NCBI GenBank assembly: GCA_965371325.1
Contig: CBDUXZ010000109.1
Span: forward strand, 1-6,563
Origin: CBDUXZ01 sp965371325 [NCBI: uncultured bacterium]
Lineage (GTDB): Bacteria; JAUYMQ01
DNA length: 6,563 nucleotides
Direction: 5' to 3'
Below, one piece after another: positions 243 to 6,563 of the stretch. The translations under genes and the position numbers were made by a program. Below the pieces are notes generated by a model that ran no database searches, had not been told where the DNA came from, and worked only from the letters and a program-made list of their open reading frames with translations. Position 1 is the stretch's first letter, and each line of letters begins with the position of its first letter.

Positions 243-581
243 CTAGACGTCCTTGAGCAGCCCCTCGCGGATCATCCGTTCGGCCACACCATCGAGATCG
301 GGATCGTAACGTCCCTCCGCGATGATCTTCCGGTAACGGGCGACCAGCTCTTCACGGACCTCAGGGACGCCCTTGAGGGTATCCGCCGCAACACTGAACT
401 GATCCAGACCGTTCCCGCCGCTCCCGTTTGACCCGCCGTTGGAAGGCTTCTCGTCCGCAGGATCATCGGTGGGGCGGCGCATCCCGCCATTCCCCCCATC
501 CGGGGTCGAGGGGAGGGCGCGCCGGGCATTCGAGGTGCCCCTGGATTTTCGGCCCCCCCGGGGCCTGGATCGCTTGCTCAT
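243..581 (-). CDS. flgM: FlgM-type anti-sigma-28 factor
   Basis: This 112-residue protein is probably FlgM, which binds and inhibits the flagellar sigma factor FliA until the hook-basal body is complete. The C-terminal half (about residues 60-110) carries the family signature: a PEVREELV segment, then a helix with IAEGRYDPD, then VAERMIREGL. This matches the sigma-28-binding helices of FlgM. The N-terminal 58 residues are rich in Gly, Ser, Arg and Pro and look disordered; a flexible N-terminus is normal for FlgM, but the strongly basic first 21 residues are unusual. The start at 581 is supported by GGAG five bases upstream. An internal ATG at 482 would give 79 residues but has a weaker site. 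The protein is slightly longer than the usual FlgM of roughly 100 residues. It lies downstream of fliA on the same strand but is separated from it by a terminator and has its own candidate promoter. Confidence 0.88.
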   Translation of the reverse strand: MSKRSRPRGGRKSRGTSNARRALPSTPDGGNGGMRRPTDDPADEKPSNGGSNGSGGNGLDQFSVAADTLKGVPEVREELVARYRKIIAEGRYDPDLDGVAERMIREGLLKDV

Positions 582-639: not shown

Positions 640-667
640 GTATCGGCCCCGCCGGGAAGAGCCTTGA
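640..667 (-). promoter_or_regulatory. Candidate sigma-28 promoter of flgM
   Basis: On the minus strand TCAAG (667-663) is followed by 15 bases and then GCCGATAC (647-640). The second element matches the flagellar sigma-28 -10 box GCCGATAA at seven of eight positions. The upstream element resembles TAAAG with a spacer one base longer than in enteric bacteria. The expected start would be near 633, giving a leader of about 50 bases. Its position between the fliA terminator and flgM makes it functionally sensible, as flgM is commonly driven by sigma-28 itself. Confidence 0.55.
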
Positions 668-748: not shown

Positions 749-1507
749 TTATTTCTCGACGAGGCTCTTCAGTTTCGCACGAAGCCGGAGGATGGCCTTT
801 GTATGAATCTGGCAGACCCGCGATTCGGTGATGTCGAGGATCTTCCCGACCTCCTTCATGTTGAGTTCGTCGTAGTAGTACAGCGAAATGACGAGTCTCT
901 CTTTCTCGGGCAGATGGCTTATTGATTCCGCGACGATCCGCTTCATCTCATCGATGTTGAGGGCCCCGGCCGGGTCCTCGCCGGTCGTGTCCTCGAGAAC
1001 GTCGATCAGGTTTTTCTTTTCCAGGTCGCTTGCGTTTCGGACCTCGTCCAGGTTCACAACCGAGATCCCGCGTACCTGGTTCAGCATTTCATGAAACTTT
1101 TTGATCTCCACCCCGAGTTCACCCGCCACCTCTTCGTCGGAAGCCGACCTCCCGAGTTTCTGCTCCATCTGGCTGTAAGCTGCTTCGAGCTTGCGGCTCT
1201 TCTGCCTCACCGAGCGCGGAACCCAATCAAGCGACCTGAGCTGATCGAGAATAGCTCCCTTAATTCTGAATTCGGCATAGGTCTTGAACTTGCAGTTCTT
1301 TTCGGGGTTGTATTTTTCGATTGCGTCCATGAGCCCGATGACGCCGGTGTTCATGAGATCATCGAGGTCGACATGGGAAGGGAGGCGCTGAGCGATACGG
1401 TTCACGATGTACTTGATGAGGGGAGCATGCTCCATGATGAGCCGATCGCGGGTGGTCTGGCTCATGTTCCCGTTCTCCGCACTGTGGCGCTTGGGTTCCA
1501 CGTTCAT
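749..1507 (-). CDS. fliA: Flagellar sigma factor sigma-28 (FliA/WhiG family)
   Basis: This 252-residue protein is a group 3 RNA polymerase sigma factor that recognises late flagellar and chemotaxis promoters. Region 2 is clear: HAPLIKYIVNRIAQRLP (27-43), VDLDDLMNTGVIGLMDAIEKY (46-66) and KFKTYAEFRIKGAILDQLRSLDWVPRSVR (73-101), the last typical of the FliA group. Region 3 spans roughly 102-160. Region 4 (about 195-248) has LPEKERLVISLYYYDELNMKEVG and the helix-turn-helix ITESRVCQIHTKAILRLR. Length is normal for the family. The start at 1507 is chosen for GGAGAG five bases upstream; the longer frame from 1561 lacks such a site. An internal ATG at 1465 also has a weak GGAG and cannot be excluded. 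Upstream lie a structured leader and a strong sigma-54 promoter, and downstream an intrinsic terminator, so fliA is probably monocistronic. The neighbouring flgM would encode its inhibitor. Confidence 0.96.
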   Translation of the reverse strand: MNVEPKRHSAENGNMSQTTRDRLIMEHAPLIKYIVNRIAQRLPSHVDLDDLMNTGVIGLMDAIEKYNPEKNCKFKTYAEFRIKGAILDQLRSLDWVPRSVRQKSRKLEAAYSQMEQKLGRSASDEEVAGELGVEIKKFHEMLNQVRGISVVNLDEVRNASDLEKKNLIDVLEDTTGEDPAGALNIDEMKRIVAESISHLPEKERLVISLYYYDELNMKEVGKILDITESRVCQIHTKAILRLRAKLKSLVEK

Positions 1508-1665
1508 TACTTCTCTCCAAATCTTGGTGGAGGGTCCGGTCCAGAGACCGGACGTAATCACCGGTCGAGGCCGCGGCGCCTCTCGGGAGGTACCGCGGAA
1601 GCCGTCCGGTGGAGAAATGTTTCCGTGGAGTGGGGGGTTCTCCTTTCATCCTGGAACGCGTCCGA
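1508..1665 (-). promoter_or_regulatory. Structured 5' leader of fliA
   Basis: This is the transcribed leader expected from the sigma-54 promoter. It can form a nested hairpin with arms CCGCGG (1571-1576) and CCGCGG (1593-1598) enclosing CCTC/GAGG and a four-base loop. It can also form a perfect 8-bp hairpin GTCCGGTC/GACCGGAC with a four-base loop (1534-1553). The segment 1546-1551 (GACCGG) can instead pair with CCGGTC at 1561-1566, so the two pairings exclude each other. Closer to the gene, CTCCA (1532-1528, minus strand) can pair with TGGAG (1519-1515), which includes the Shine-Dalgarno sequence. The pairings are seen in the sequence; a regulatory role is inference. Confidence 0.45.
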
Positions 1666-1676
1666 AGGCGAAATTT

Positions 1677-1691
1677 GCAATCGCTATGCCA
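1677..1691 (-). promoter_or_regulatory. Sigma-54 (-24/-12) promoter of fliA
   Basis: The minus strand reads TGGCATAGCGATTGC followed by AAATTT. This has the invariant GG and GC dinucleotides ten bases apart and matches the consensus TGGCACG-N4-TTGC except at two of the less critical -24 positions. A preceding T and following A also fit the consensus. Transcription should start near 1665, about 158 bases before the fliA start codon. An EBP gene with an intact GAFTGA motif lies immediately upstream on the same strand and is the obvious activator. Confidence 0.85.
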
Positions 1692-1897: not shown

Positions 1898-1969
1898 TTT
1901 GTCGCTGAGGTACGAGATTGTACCGAAGCGGGGACCCGGAAGTTCACTCTTGTGATTAGGCCGAGGAGG

Positions 1970-1996
1970 GGGAGCCCGGAACGCCTGTGGGCTCCC
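1970..1996 (-). terminator. Strong hairpin after the EBP gene, possible 3' end
   Basis: GGGAGCCC (1970-1977) and GGGCTCCC (1989-1996) form a perfect 8-bp stem with an 11-base loop, 73 bases past the EBP stop codon. There is no T-tract on either strand, so it is not a standard intrinsic terminator. It could mark or protect the mRNA 3' end of the EBP transcript. Confidence 0.35.
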
Positions 1997-2068
1997 GGAA
2001 ACGGGATGGGAAACTGGGTCACGGTGTGGTAATCGGCGATCCCGGAAAGGAGAGCAGGGGGGTGTGGT

Positions 2069-3535
<1,467 letters not shown>

Positions 3536-3676: not shown

Positions 3677-3704
3677 TCAAGAGAACGGGCGATTTAGCCG
3701 AAAA
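3677..3704 (+). promoter_or_regulatory. Candidate sigma-28-like promoter of the pseudo-EBP/HD-GYP operon
   Basis: TCAAG (3677-3681), 15 bases, then GCCGAAAA (3697-3704) repeats exactly the layout of the element ahead of flgM, and matches the GCCGATAA box at seven of eight positions. Transcription would begin near 3711, about 100 bases before the coding start at 3810. If real, it places these two genes in the late flagellar class. The upstream element is a weak match. Confidence 0.35.
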
Positions 3705-3738
3705 AGTCTCCAAGCGATGTTTCGTGCTGATCCATATC

Positions 3739-3809: not shown

Positions 3810-5156
3810 ATGACAAAGATTTCAGACAACAAGGGACGCGTGCTAATCACCGGGGGCCCTGCCGATCTGGTCGCGGCGCTGTCGAGCGCTCTGGAGCGCG
3901 ATGGCCAGCGCGTTTCCACTATTCAGTCGATCTCCATGGCCATCGAGGTCCTGACCGCGCGAAATCCCGATGTGCTGCTCATCGGAAGCGATCCTTCGGG
4001 CAAGGGCGGACGCGCAGTGCTGGAGCAAGTCCGGGCCGTCCGGCCGGGGACCCAGGTTATCCTGCTGACGGATAGGGGCGGCATCGCAGACGCCGGTGCC
4101 CTTGCCCGCGCGGGCCTCGTGGACTTCCTGGAGAGCCTGCCGGCAGAAACGGAACTGGTTACGCTCCTGGTCCGCCGGGCTGTCGAGCGAAAGTCGCTTC
4201 TCACCCGGGTGGGTCAACTTGATTCCAGCCAGGATGCTGCCGGCACGCTTTGCGGGATCGTCGGCTCCTCGCTTTCGATGCGGGAGATATCGAGGCGCGC
4301 CACCCAGTGCTCCCTCGGCCATGTGAATATCGTGATCGAAGGGGAAGAGGGGACGGGGCGATCGACGATCGCCAAGGCGATCCATCAGGAGGGTTCGCGG
4401 AGGGATCAACCTCTCATTCAGGTCCGTCGTACCGAGACGGCGGAAGCAATGGCAGGCTTATTTGGAGAGGCCAGCGCCGGGACCGTCCTATTCGAGGCTG
4501 TCGATGCGCTCCGCGGCGACGCGCAACGAAGCGTCCTCTCCATCCTGGAGGCGCAGGAACAGGAGGAGATTGTTCAGGGGTCCGGTGGCGGGGAAACACG
4601 ACCACGGATTGTGGCCCTTACGAGCGTCGATTTGGATCTTCAGGTTCAGCGAGGCCGGTTCGAGGGGGAGCTCTACCGCCGTTTGAAGGGCGAGTCACTC
4701 CGGATGCCTCCACTCCGGGAAAGGCGCGAGGACATTCCGGGCCTCGTTCAGCATTTTCTCCGGAAGCATGAGCGCGAGGAGGCTTCCGTGAAGGGAATCG
4801 ATTCTACCGCGCTGAACCTCCTTTGTCAGTACGATTGGCCGGGGAATGTGCAGGAGCTGGAGGACTGTGTTCGGTACGCCATCGCGGTGGCAGGGGTGCA
4901 GACTATCCAGACGGAGCATTTTCCGGAGAAGGTCGTCGAATCGTCCAAGCGGCGCGTGGTCGGCGAAAGCGCGAGTGCGCTTTCTCTCAAGGGTTACGAA
5001 AAACACTCGATCGAACACGCTCTGATGCTGTGCGACGGTGACATCCTGCGGGCGGCGAATATGCTGGGGATTGGCAGAAGCACGCTGTACCGAAAGATGA
5101 AGTTCCACGGAATCAGAAGGCGCCCGATCCGCTGTGACCGACCCACGAGCGGCTGA
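3810..5156 (+). CDS. Catalytically degenerate enhancer-binding-protein homologue (REC-like, AAA+-like, Fis HTH)
   Basis: This 448-residue protein has the NtrC-family order: receiver-like (about 9-125), AAA+-like (about 147-375) and Fis-type helix-turn-helix (about 395-434, with GIGRSTLYRKMK). The start at 3810 follows GGAAG five bases upstream; the frame extends to 3624, but those residues resemble nothing. Every active site is altered. In the receiver the acidic pair is Gly-Gly (15-16), the phosphoacceptor is Gly59 and the conserved Lys is Ser109. In the ATPase, Walker A is GEEGTGRS (Lys to Arg184), Walker B ends Glu229-Ala230 instead of Asp-Glu, sensor I Asn is Ser272, the first arginine finger is Glu285 and sensor II Arg is Gln348. 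About 18 residues spanning GAFTGA are absent between LFG (217-219) and AGTVLF (223-228). Scaffold motifs such as PPLRERREDI and WPGNV remain and the frame is unbroken, so the gene looks maintained. It cannot be a normal sigma-54 activator. A DNA-binding repressor, a sigma-70 regulator (TyrR-like) or a partner that poisons the divergent EBP are possible. Confidence 0.9.
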   Translation: MTKISDNKGRVLITGGPADLVAALSSALERDGQRVSTIQSISMAIEVLTARNPDVLLIGSDPSGKGGRAVLEQVRAVRPGTQVILLTDRGGIADAGALARAGLVDFLESLPAETELVTLLVRRAVERKSLLTRVGQLDSSQDAAGTLCGIVGSSLSMREISRRATQCSLGHVNIVIEGEEGTGRSTIAKAIHQEGSRRDQPLIQVRRTETAEAMAGLFGEASAGTVLFEAVDALRGDAQRSVLSILEAQEQEEIVQGSGGGETRPRIVALTSVDLDLQVQRGRFEGELYRRLKGESLRMPPLRERREDIPGLVQHFLRKHEREEASVKGIDSTALNLLCQYDWPGNVQELEDCVRYAIAVAGVQTIQTEHFPEKVVESSKRRVVGESASALSLKGYEKHSIEHALMLCDGDILRAANMLGIGRSTLYRKMKFHGIRRRPIRCDRPTSG

Positions 5157-5202: not shown

Positions 5203-6312
5203 ATGAAACCCGCCGTTCTGTTCGTCGATGACGAGCCCAATATCCTGAAGGCGTTGGGGAGGCTTTTCCGCGGCGAGAATTTCGATCTCAAAACAGCGGG
5301 AAGCGGCGCCGACGCCCTCAAGCTGATCGAAGAGCGCCCGGTCCAGATTCTAGTCAGCGATCACCGGATGCCGGGCATGACCGGCGTCGATCTTCTCTCG
5401 AAGGTTCGCGAACGCTGGCCGGAAGTCATGCGAATTCTGGTGACCGGCAACTCCGAGATCAATATCGCGGTCGATGCCATCAATCGCGGTCAGATCTTCA
5501 GGCTCATCACCAAGCCCTGGAATGACGACGAAATCAAGGCCACCGTGAAAGAGGCCCTGGATCTTTACTTGCTGAAGGATGAGATCAAGCGTCTTAATCA
5601 CCTTACGCAGGAGCAGAATCTCGAGCTCAAGGACCTGCATCATAATCTCGAGCAGAAGGTGATGGAGCGAACCCGGGATCTCTCCAAGAAGAACGCGGAG
5701 CTGGGGCATGTCTACGTTGGTACGCTGAGGGCTGTCATCGGCTCGGTCGACGCGCGGCACCGCTGCTCTTCGGGTCACTCGGAGCGTGTGGGTAATTGCA
5801 CGGCGATGATCGCGCGCCGGATGGGCCTCGAAGAGCCTCGCGTCAGGAGAATGCAGATCGCCGGCCTGCTTCATGATGTGGGGATCATAGGCGTTCGTGG
5901 AAAAATCTTCGGCAAGCAGGGTCCGCTTTCACCAGACGAGTGGAAGGAGATGAGGGAACATCCGGTTCTGTCGGTGCAGATCATCGGCGCAGTCCCCGGG
6001 TTGCAGGACATTCTTCCGATGGTGCGCAACCATCACGAGTGGTTCGACGGAGACGGGCGCGGCTATCCGGACGGTCTGAAGGGAGACGCCATCAATACGG
6101 GCGCCAGGATCATTCGCATCGCCGACGCAATCGAAGCGATGACTCATGACCGCCCGTACAGAAAAGCCCGCCCCCTCGATCGCGTGATAGATGAGCTGAA
6201 GAAACTCTCGGGCAGCGCTTTCGATCCCGATGTCGCCCGTTGCGCGGTTGATCTCATCGAGGAAGGCGGAGAGGAATTCGTCGAGGCCCAGTCGAGGAAC
6301 GACTCCTTTTAG
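5203..6312 (+). CDS. Response regulator with HD-GYP domain (RpfG-type cyclic-di-GMP phosphodiesterase)
   Basis: This 369-residue cytoplasmic protein probably hydrolyses cyclic-di-GMP in response to phosphorylation. The receiver domain (4-120) is intact: D9/D10, phosphoacceptor D53 in SDHRMPG, T81 and K104. A charged coiled-coil linker (about 124-168, with LEQKVMERTRDL) leads to the HD-GYP domain (about 170-355). The expected metal and substrate residues are present: H192 in GHSERVG, H224-D225, H253, H277-H278, GYP (287-289) and D308. Two oddities: the HDxGK motif reads HDVGI (Lys to Ile228), and the DG-to-GYP spacing is three residues (DGDGRGYP), where one is usual. The start at 5203 follows a GGAG/GAGAGG site; an upstream GTG at 5134 would overlap the preceding gene and adds unrelated residues. 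It lies 46 bases after the pseudo-EBP gene, probably in one operon, consistent with a link between cyclic-di-GMP and motility. No cognate kinase is in the window. Confidence 0.93.
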   Translation: MKPAVLFVDDEPNILKALGRLFRGENFDLKTAGSGADALKLIEERPVQILVSDHRMPGMTGVDLLSKVRERWPEVMRILVTGNSEINIAVDAINRGQIFRLITKPWNDDEIKATVKEALDLYLLKDEIKRLNHLTQEQNLELKDLHHNLEQKVMERTRDLSKKNAELGHVYVGTLRAVIGSVDARHRCSSGHSERVGNCTAMIARRMGLEEPRVRRMQIAGLLHDVGIIGVRGKIFGKQGPLSPDEWKEMREHPVLSVQIIGAVPGLQDILPMVRNHHEWFDGDGRGYPDGLKGDAINTGARIIRIADAIEAMTHDRPYRKARPLDRVIDELKKLSGSAFDPDVARCAVDLIEEGGEEFVEAQSRNDSF

Positions 6313-6345: not shown

Positions 6346-6563
6346 CTAGTGGTAGCGTCTCAGGTAGGAGAGATCCTTGTCCTGGGTATTCTTGGCGCCG
6401 ATCAGCACGATGCGCATCTTTCCCCCTTCGCCCTGACAGAAATAGATTCGTCTCTTCCCTGCGAAACCCAGTTCGAAGATATTGCCACGCTCGAGTCCCC
6501 CCACCTTTCGGCGCAGGGGTAGATTGTCGTCGCGGTCATTCAGGCGCTTGATGACCTCTTCTG
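6346..6563 (-). CDS. RelE/ParE-family toxin, C-terminal part (cut by window edge)
   Basis: The last 71 residues of a minus-strand gene are visible; the start lies beyond the right edge. The sequence has the compact beta-rich layout of RelE/ParE/HigB toxins, especially the 'addiction module killer' (Gp49-like) group: a KVGGLERGNIFEL segment, then RRIYFCQ, then MRIVLIGAKNTQDKDL and a final LRRYH. These correspond to the usual K.L..G..ELR, R.YF, and ..VLL..G.K.TQ..DI pattern. Such proteins run to about 100 residues, so roughly a quarter to a third is missing. They typically cleave mRNA at the ribosome or poison gyrase; which applies here cannot be told. An antitoxin gene is not in the window. 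The gene converges on the HD-GYP gene, with 33 bases between stop codons and no obvious terminator. Confidence 0.72.
   Translation of the reverse strand, partial: EEVIKRLNDRDDNLPLRRKVGGLERGNIFELGFAGKRRIYFCQGEGGKMRIVLIGAKNTQDKDLSYLRRYH

What the first reader, a model, noticed from the sequence alone, without database searches (positions are those of the whole stretch)
3810..5156. A pseudo-enzyme version of a sigma-54 activator with all three switch and motor sites lost
Seen directly: no phosphoacceptor Asp (Gly59), no acidic pair, no receiver Lys, Walker A Lys to Arg184, Walker B Asp-Glu to Glu229-Ala230, arginine finger to Glu285, sensor I Asn to Ser272, sensor II Arg to Gln348, and an 18-residue gap removing GAFTGA. 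The frame, the fold-marking motifs and the helix-turn-helix survive. Known relatives without GAFTGA (TyrR, Rhodobacter NtrC) keep nucleotide-binding residues; loss of the whole ATPase together with the receiver site is more extreme. Inference: it has been repurposed as a DNA-binding repressor or as a subunit that interferes with EBP oligomers.
Basis: partly seen in the sequence, partly recalled or inferred. Interest (0 to 1): 0.82.

Follow-up and report, generated by a model that had tools for sequence, protein, structure and literature searches.

The report
Motorless flagellar gene regulator, DNA-binding retained
In an uncultured bacterium, a regulator beside the flagellar sigma-factor gene has lost its phosphate switch and its ATP motor while keeping its DNA-binding end, its fold pattern and a flagellar-type promoter, so it looks like an activator turned into a passive DNA-binding regulator rather than a dead gene.

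Summary
The 448-residue ORF at 3810-5156 is a receiver-AAA+-Fis-HTH protein lacking the phosphoacceptor Asp, the acidic pair, the receiver Lys, Walker A Lys, Walker B Asp-Glu, one of two arginine-finger residues, sensors I and II, and the GAFTGA loop (19 residues gone against its own orthologues).

New here: by position and tree it is the orthologue of a regulator ('DIV') found divergent to the EBP beside fliA in one bacterial class. In 39 of 39 DIV copies Walker A Lys, Walker B and the L1 loop are intact.

Simple decay fits poorly. Of positions invariant in DIV, 17 of 17 in the HTH and 14 of 17 in the lid are kept, against 22 of 59 in the AAA core. The frame is open, hydrophobic patterning beats neutral simulation, and a FliA-type promoter is kept.

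Best reading: a FliA-switched DNA-binding regulator without phosphate or ATP control, probably a repressor or competitor in the flagellar cascade. GAFTGA-less EBPs are known, so this is an extreme variant of a known kind. It rests on one sequence; no orthologue sharing the losses was found.

The parts
3810..5156 (+). Motor-less, switch-less EBP derivative (448 aa); possible longer start at 3717
3832..4193 (+). Degenerate receiver (residues 8-128): acidic pair Gly-Gly, Asp59Gly, Lys to Ser109; Thr87 kept
4254..4712 (+). AAA+ core (residues 149-301) without GAFTGA loop, Walker A Lys, Walker B Asp-Glu, first arginine-finger Arg, sensor I
4713..4952 (+). AAA lid (residues 302-381), 14 of 17 invariant positions kept; sensor II Arg to Gln348
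4986..5117 (+). Fis-type HTH (residues 393-436), 17 of 17 invariant positions kept
3677..3703 (+). FliA (sigma-28)-type promoter TCAAG-N15-GCCGAAA, at the place where relatives' DIV genes have theirs
2069..3535 (-). Divergent EBP with intact motor and GAFTGA but receiver Asp to Ser; orthologue of FLG, the EBP beside fliA
749..1561 (-). fliA (sigma-28)
1676..1691 (-). sigma-54 promoter element TGGCATAGCGATTGCA upstream of fliA, one mismatch
243..581 (-). flgM (anti-sigma-28)
   Evidence: Pfam above cut-off, NCBIfam below its own
641..667 (-). FliA-type promoter upstream of flgM, 12 of 12 consensus positions
5203..6312 (+). Receiver + HD-GYP protein, 46 bases downstream on the same strand, probably one operon with the motor-less EBP
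1920..1935 (.). Candidate operator GTACCGAAGCGGGGAC, two mismatches to the DIV-promoter palindrome (lead only)
1992..2007 (.). Candidate operator CTCCCGGAAACGGGAT, two mismatches to the DIV-promoter palindrome (lead only)

Best explanation
The gene is this lineage's orthologue of a FliA-dependent, phosphorylation-controlled sigma-54 activator (DIV). On this lineage it lost the phosphate switch, ATP binding and hydrolysis and the sigma-54-contacting loop, and kept the fold pattern, the lid and the Fis-type DNA-binding domain. It most likely works as a constitutive DNA-binding dimer, made once FliA is active, that occupies old DIV sites and represses or competes with other regulators there: a late negative feedback on the flagellar cascade, with its own operon (including the HD-GYP gene) and the fliA region as candidate targets. 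Shown by computation: orthology, the losses, selective retention, the promoter match. Inferred: DNA binding, dimer, repression and targets.
For: Synteny and tree with intact DIV; HTH 17 of 17 and lid 14 of 17 invariant positions kept against AAA 22 of 59 and receiver 8 of 18 (Fisher HTH vs AAA 1.8e-6); lid+HTH branch 1.32 against 0.86 for the neighbouring EBP, while full-length is 4.11 against 0.99; open frame against neutral simulation; hydrophobic patterning of receiver and AAA core; FliA-type promoter kept; in 12 of 39 DIV loci an exact palindrome at the DIV promoter, 10 of them inside the TCAAG-N16-CCGAT spacer, a repressor-like position.
Against: One sequence only; no dN/dS. The window's own promoter has lost the palindrome, and the sites near fliA were found post hoc. 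That DIV binds the palindrome is inferred from place and phyletic pattern; no wider regulon was found. No experiment.
Confidence: 0.5

Rival explanations
1. It is an activator at non-sigma-54 promoters (sigma-70 or sigma-28), contacting RNA polymerase without ATP, as reported for GAFTGA-less EBPs.
For: GAFTGA-less NtrC of Caulobacter and Rhodobacter act at sigma-70 promoters, as activator and repressor in Caulobacter (PMC10274813 and PMC12421884 passages); the V. cholerae protein printed there as VspR (I take it to be VpsR) is said not to need ATP; the HTH is kept.
Against: Nothing here shows activation. Caulobacter and Rhodobacter NtrC need their phosphoacceptor and nucleotide-site residues, which are gone here.
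Confidence: 0.2
2. The gene is on its way out: relaxed selection after loss of its signal, with the HTH kept only because too little time has passed.
For: 39 of 39 DIV orthologues are intact; 18 of 55 FLG loci show no DIV on the fetched piece (3 of them, L157, L165 and L175, with little upstream sequence), so the gene is dispensable in the class; long branch.
Against: Neutral drift to 70% identity or less leaves the frame open in 1 of 300 runs; HTH kept 17 of 17; hydrophobic patterning; FliA-type promoter kept.
Confidence: 0.15
3. It is a regulatory subunit that enters oligomers of the neighbouring intact EBP and poisons or tunes them.
For: Divergent neighbour of an intact EBP; hetero-oligomeric flagellar EBPs exist (FleQ/FleT, PMC7277832 passage); predicted AAA fold kept; Arg291 kept.
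Against: The AAA core changed most (22 of 59 kept, with Arg285 and Asp287 among the lost), while the HTH, which a pure oligomer poison would not need, is best kept.
Confidence: 0.15

Closest known systems
DIV EBP of the relatives (intact syntenic orthologues, e.g. L105:5066-6505)
   Same: Domain order, position divergent to the EBP beside fliA, FliA-type promoter, HTH
   Different: Relatives keep phosphoacceptor Asp, Walker A Lys, Walker B and the L1 loop in 39 of 39; the window copy has none of them
GAFTGA-less NtrC of Caulobacter and Rhodobacter
   Same: Receiver-AAA-HTH EBP with the L1 loop deleted (PMC10274813 passages)
   Different: They keep and need phosphoacceptor and nucleotide-site residues; all of these are lost here
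Brucella NtrX (PDB 5m7n)
   Same: Full-length match by sequence (E 3e-35) and fold (Z 26.3, but 25.1 A over all domains, i.e. different domain placement); its aligned L1 region is also short
   Different: In the alignment NtrX keeps Walker A Lys, Walker B Asp-Glu and both arginines; solved with ATP
VpsR of Vibrio cholerae (PDB 7v2b)
   Same: EBP-like fold (Z 23.3); a GAFTGA-less EBP said not to need ATP (printed VspR)
   Different: Its Walker residues were not compared here; it binds c-di-GMP (entry title)
FleT, partner of FleQ in Rhodobacter sphaeroides
   Same: Second EBP-type protein in a flagellar cascade acting with a first one above FliA/FlgM (PMC7277832 passage)
   Different: FleT is described there as a sigma-54 activator in a complex with FleQ; the window protein has no motor and no GAFTGA

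Membership tests
Sigma-54 activators (bEBPs) | Homology to the sigma-54 activator AAA+ domain, with lid and Fis-type HTH | tested here: met
   PF00158 71.1, PF25601 84, PF02954 39.8 bits, all above cut-off
Sigma-54 activators (bEBPs) | GAFTGA loop that contacts sigma-54 | tested here: not met
   19 residues containing the loop are absent
Sigma-54 activators (bEBPs) | Walker A Lys and Walker B Asp-Glu | tested here: not met
   Arg184, Glu229-Ala230
Sigma-54 activators (bEBPs) | Arginine finger and sensors | tested here: not met
   First Arg to Glu285 (second, Arg291, kept), sensor I Ser272, sensor II Gln348
Phosphorylated response regulators | Phosphoacceptor Asp with acidic pair and Lys | tested here: not met
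   Gly59, Gly-Gly, Ser109; Thr87 kept
DIV orthologue group of this class | Divergent to the EBP beside fliA, own clade, FliA-type promoter | tested here: met
   Synteny, tree 98% SH-aLRT, promoter
GAFTGA-less EBPs acting at sigma-70 promoters | L1 loop deleted in an otherwise EBP-like protein | tested here: met
GAFTGA-less EBPs acting at sigma-70 promoters | Regulates sigma-70 promoters | not testable with these tools
   needs an experiment
Hetero-oligomeric EBP partners (FleQ/FleT type) | Physical complex with a second EBP | not testable with these tools
   needs an experiment

The most novel reading that the evidence does not exclude
A true pseudo-EBP: in this lineage both flagellar two-component regulators lost phosphate control together. 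One became a phosphorylation-independent sigma-54 activator of fliA; the other lost its motor and became a FliA-switched DNA-binding antagonist of the same cascade, i.e. an activator converted into the feedback repressor of its former circuit.
Probability: 0.25. Interest if true: 0.6.

Novelty: new variant of a known kind. Interest (0 to 1): 0.45.

Why it matters
EBPs without GAFTGA are known, but the NtrC examples read about here still need phosphorylation or nucleotide-site residues. This one has lost switch, motor and sigma-54 contact together while its DNA-binding domain and fold pattern appear to stay under selection, and its 39 intact orthologues give a before-and-after comparison. It makes testable whether an activator can become a repressor simply by losing its motor, and whether that goes with loss of kinase control in the partner regulator.

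Tried and rejected
Close orthologues sharing the losses: none among 70 genome-contig loci (23-34% identity over the best segment), none in viral contigs, none evident in 377 genomes of the phylum (74 have a match at E 1e-48; listed matches 30-38% identity; only 4 candidates scored per genome, so a weak copy could be missed). dN/dS was therefore not possible.

Origin: FliA at E 1e-92 or better in 0 of 58, 0 of 148 and 0 of 118 genomes of other phylum samples (the last two share genomes). In the class of G135, 55 of 90 genomes match at E 1e-105 or better, all at 65-70% identity: a deep branch in or next to that class. The class has no name here; one member carries the title 'Deltaproteobacteria bacterium isolate CSMAG_998' (G015/L055).

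A DIV regulon from the palindrome GTCCCG-N4-CGGGAC: one search gave 30 exact sites in 12 DIV-bearing genomes, which I chose because they hold the exact site (12 of the 30 are the DIV promoters; reversed-pattern control 14), and 9 in 12 genomes where no DIV was seen beside FLG (control 13). I read 20 of the other 27 sites: all lie inside a reading frame of over 150 codons and none has a sigma-54 pattern within 250 bases (6 have a loose FliA-type pattern within that distance, not overlapping). No wider regulon shown. Near the fliA -24 element, the best palindrome match is closer to consensus in DIV-bearing loci (mean mismatches 3.1 in 34 against 4.2 in 18, Mann-Whitney p 0.002), but loci are related, the second half-site often overlaps TGGCAC itself, and two of the better sites (L145, L146) are in loci with no DIV on the piece.

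Weak or negative controls: counting only residues never seen in DIV, the hydrophobic contrast is weak (10 of 22 against 8 of 35 in AAA, p 0.09; 9 of 15 against 6 of 19 in the receiver, p 0.16). In the neutral simulation the polar measure alone is not unusual for the receiver (50 of 200 runs). The sigma-54 scan of the window gave 20 matches with up to 3 mismatches against 18.7 expected; only the fliA site has one mismatch. No shuffled control was run for the promoter scans of relatives.

Rows left out: 4 of 60 fetched regions (L181-L184) were picked because the protein search or an fliA fragment pointed to them, so DIV frequency is biased upward; fliA contigs ending next to the gene (e.g. G317) were not fetched. 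Tree: 38 of 39 DIV (L148 is truncated), 27 of 55 FLG (every second one, long enough), 11 outgroup rows. Promoter search: 35 of 39 DIV loci, 4 had no anchor. Intergenic palindromes were first looked for in 17 loci.

PADLOC matches (RtcR; Cas3g/Cas10) are generic AAA/HTH or HD similarity and were set aside.

Literature: seven searches of the held library. I saw no paper in those listings or passages describing an EBP that lacks receiver site, Walker residues and GAFTGA together; most subscription journals are not held. Papers were seen as passages only (PMC12421884, PMC7277832, PMC10714721, PMC10274813). The sigma-28 consensus, the motif names and the roles of TyrR and HrpR/HrpS are recalled.

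Full report
What is in the sequence. The ORF at 3810-5156 encodes 448 residues with a receiver, a sigma-54-activator AAA+ domain matched in two stretches, the AAA lid and a Fis-type HTH. NCBIfam matches are generic (NtrC, AtoC, DhaR, NtrX) and below each curated cut-off among the 25 shown. The gap is 19 residues against its own orthologues; Arg291 and receiver Thr87 are kept. Neighbours: FlgM and FliA (minus strand), a divergent EBP with an intact motor, and a receiver-HD-GYP protein 46 bases downstream on the same strand.

Where it sits. No genome is held for the window. FliA places it in or beside one class: 55 of 90 genomes match at E 1e-105 or better, at 65-70% identity, none clearly nearest; three other phylum samples gave nothing at E 1e-92. 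I fetched 60 regions of that class. In them the EBP beside fliA ('FLG') was found in 55 loci and a second EBP ('DIV') in 39, both in 37, there always on opposite strands. FLG is the orthologue of the window's intact EBP and DIV that of the motor-less protein. In a tree of 78 rows the motor-less protein falls with 38 DIV rows (98% SH-aLRT) and the intact EBP with 27 FLG rows (92%). With lid and HTH alone its nearest rows are again DIV, but no starred set holds it.

The orthologues are intact. In DIV the phosphoacceptor Asp, Walker A Lys, Walker B Asp-Glu and the L1 loop are present in 39 of 39 (GAFTGA exact in 36, GAFTDA in 2, GAFTGS in 1); both arginines and sensor II Arg in 38 of 38 that cover them; receiver Lys in 38 of 39. 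So, as far as sampled, the degeneration is private to the window's branch.

But it does not look like plain decay. Positions at least 95% invariant in DIV are kept at 17 of 17 in the HTH, 14 of 17 in the lid, 22 of 59 in the AAA core and 8 of 18 in the receiver (Fisher HTH vs AAA 1.8e-6). Mean identity to DIV is 52% in the HTH (DIV-DIV 71%) but 29% in the AAA core (DIV-DIV 73%); the neighbouring EBP's AAA core is 67% identical to its own orthologues, so the genome as a whole is not that diverged. The end branch is 4.11 against 0.99 for the neighbour over the full length, but 1.32 against 0.86 on lid+HTH. Neutral drift to 70% identity or lower left no stop in 1 of 300 runs. For both receiver and AAA core, 0 of 200 neutral runs match the observed hydrophobic patterning on both measures together; for the receiver the polar measure alone is not unusual. 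AlphaFold2 gives mean pLDDT 87 and pTM 0.60 from 38 sequences; the AAA part superposes on FleQ 6jdi, LuxO 5ep3 and FlrC 6luf/4qht (Z about 25, 2.0-2.2 A over 216-224 residues). A model of a family member is expected to look like the family, so this alone is weak.

Promoters and circuit. A sigma-54 element scoring 12.7 or more of 15.2 lies upstream of fliA in 53 of 54 relatives and in the window at 1691-1676, minus strand, with one mismatch. DIV in relatives has TCAAG-N16-CCGAT, a FliA-type promoter (consensus recalled), in 27 of 35 loci tested. The window has TCAAG-N15-GCCGAAA at 3677-3703, 11 of 12 positions, reached in 1 of 500 shuffles; MAFFT aligns it with the promoters of five relatives. 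The inferred ancestral logic is FLG EBP to fliA by sigma-54, then FliA to DIV by sigma-28, and the window keeps both promoter matches. In 12 of 39 DIV loci an exact palindrome GTCCCG-N4-CGGGAC lies at the DIV promoter (none exact in the 21 fetched loci without DIV), in 10 of the 12 within the TCAAG-N16-CCGAT spacer, where a bound protein would block the promoter. The window promoter has lost it, but two sites with two mismatches lie upstream of fliA (0 of 2000 mononucleotide shuffles give two). This is post hoc, and that DIV is the binder is inferred. No wider regulon was found.

A second loss. The window's intact EBP has Ser at its phosphoacceptor position, where 52 of 52 covering orthologues have Asp, and Ala for the second acidic residue (Asp in 42 of 42). 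In relative L161 the gene after DIV is a PAS histidine kinase, in L156 a receiver lies further on, and DIV-less L101 also has a PAS kinase and a receiver there. In the window that slot holds the HD-GYP response regulator. This fits joint loss of kinase control of both regulators; whether a kinase lies elsewhere is unknown.

Mechanism. Best supported: a FliA-switched, constitutive DNA-binding regulator without phosphate or ATP control, probably a repressor or competitor (0.5). Rivals: activator at non-sigma-54 promoters (0.2), decay in progress (0.15), subunit that poisons or tunes the neighbouring EBP (0.15).

Known kinds. GAFTGA-less EBPs exist: Caulobacter NtrC has an eight-residue L1 deletion and R. 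capsulatus NtrC a larger one; both are reported at sigma-70 promoters, and phosphoacceptor and nucleotide-site residues still matter; a V. cholerae EBP printed as VspR is said not to need ATP (PMC10274813 passages; PMC12421884 passages). The window protein descends from sigma-54 activators but fails their defining features (motor, GAFTGA). I therefore call it an extreme new variant of a known kind.

Limits. One sequence, unnamed organism, no dN/dS, no experiment. Counts over related loci are not independent.

Noticed in passing
window 2069-3535, minus strand: The intact EBP has Ser in place of the phosphoacceptor Asp and Ala for the second acidic residue; 52 of 52 and 42 of 42 covering orthologues have Asp.
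   Followed up: yes
FLG EBPs of the class, e.g. L109:7793-9202: The EBP beside fliA has GAFTNA rather than GAFTGA in 42 of 55 relatives (6 GAFTGA, 5 GAFTSA, 2 GAFTHA); the window has GAFTGA.
   Followed up: no
DIV/FLG intergenic regions of relatives, e.g. L105 and L159: A perfect CCTCCG..CGGAGG inverted repeat lies close to the FLG start in many of the 17 regions examined and could pair with its ribosome-binding site.
   Followed up: no
L101:651-2756 (-) and L161:5957-7579 (+): PAS histidine kinase genes sit beside this EBP pair in relatives; the window has an HD-GYP response regulator in that slot.
   Followed up: partly
window 6346-6561, minus strand: A 71-residue open frame runs off the window end; by eye it resembles a RelE/HigB-type toxin fragment, but Pfam gives no match.
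   Followed up: partly
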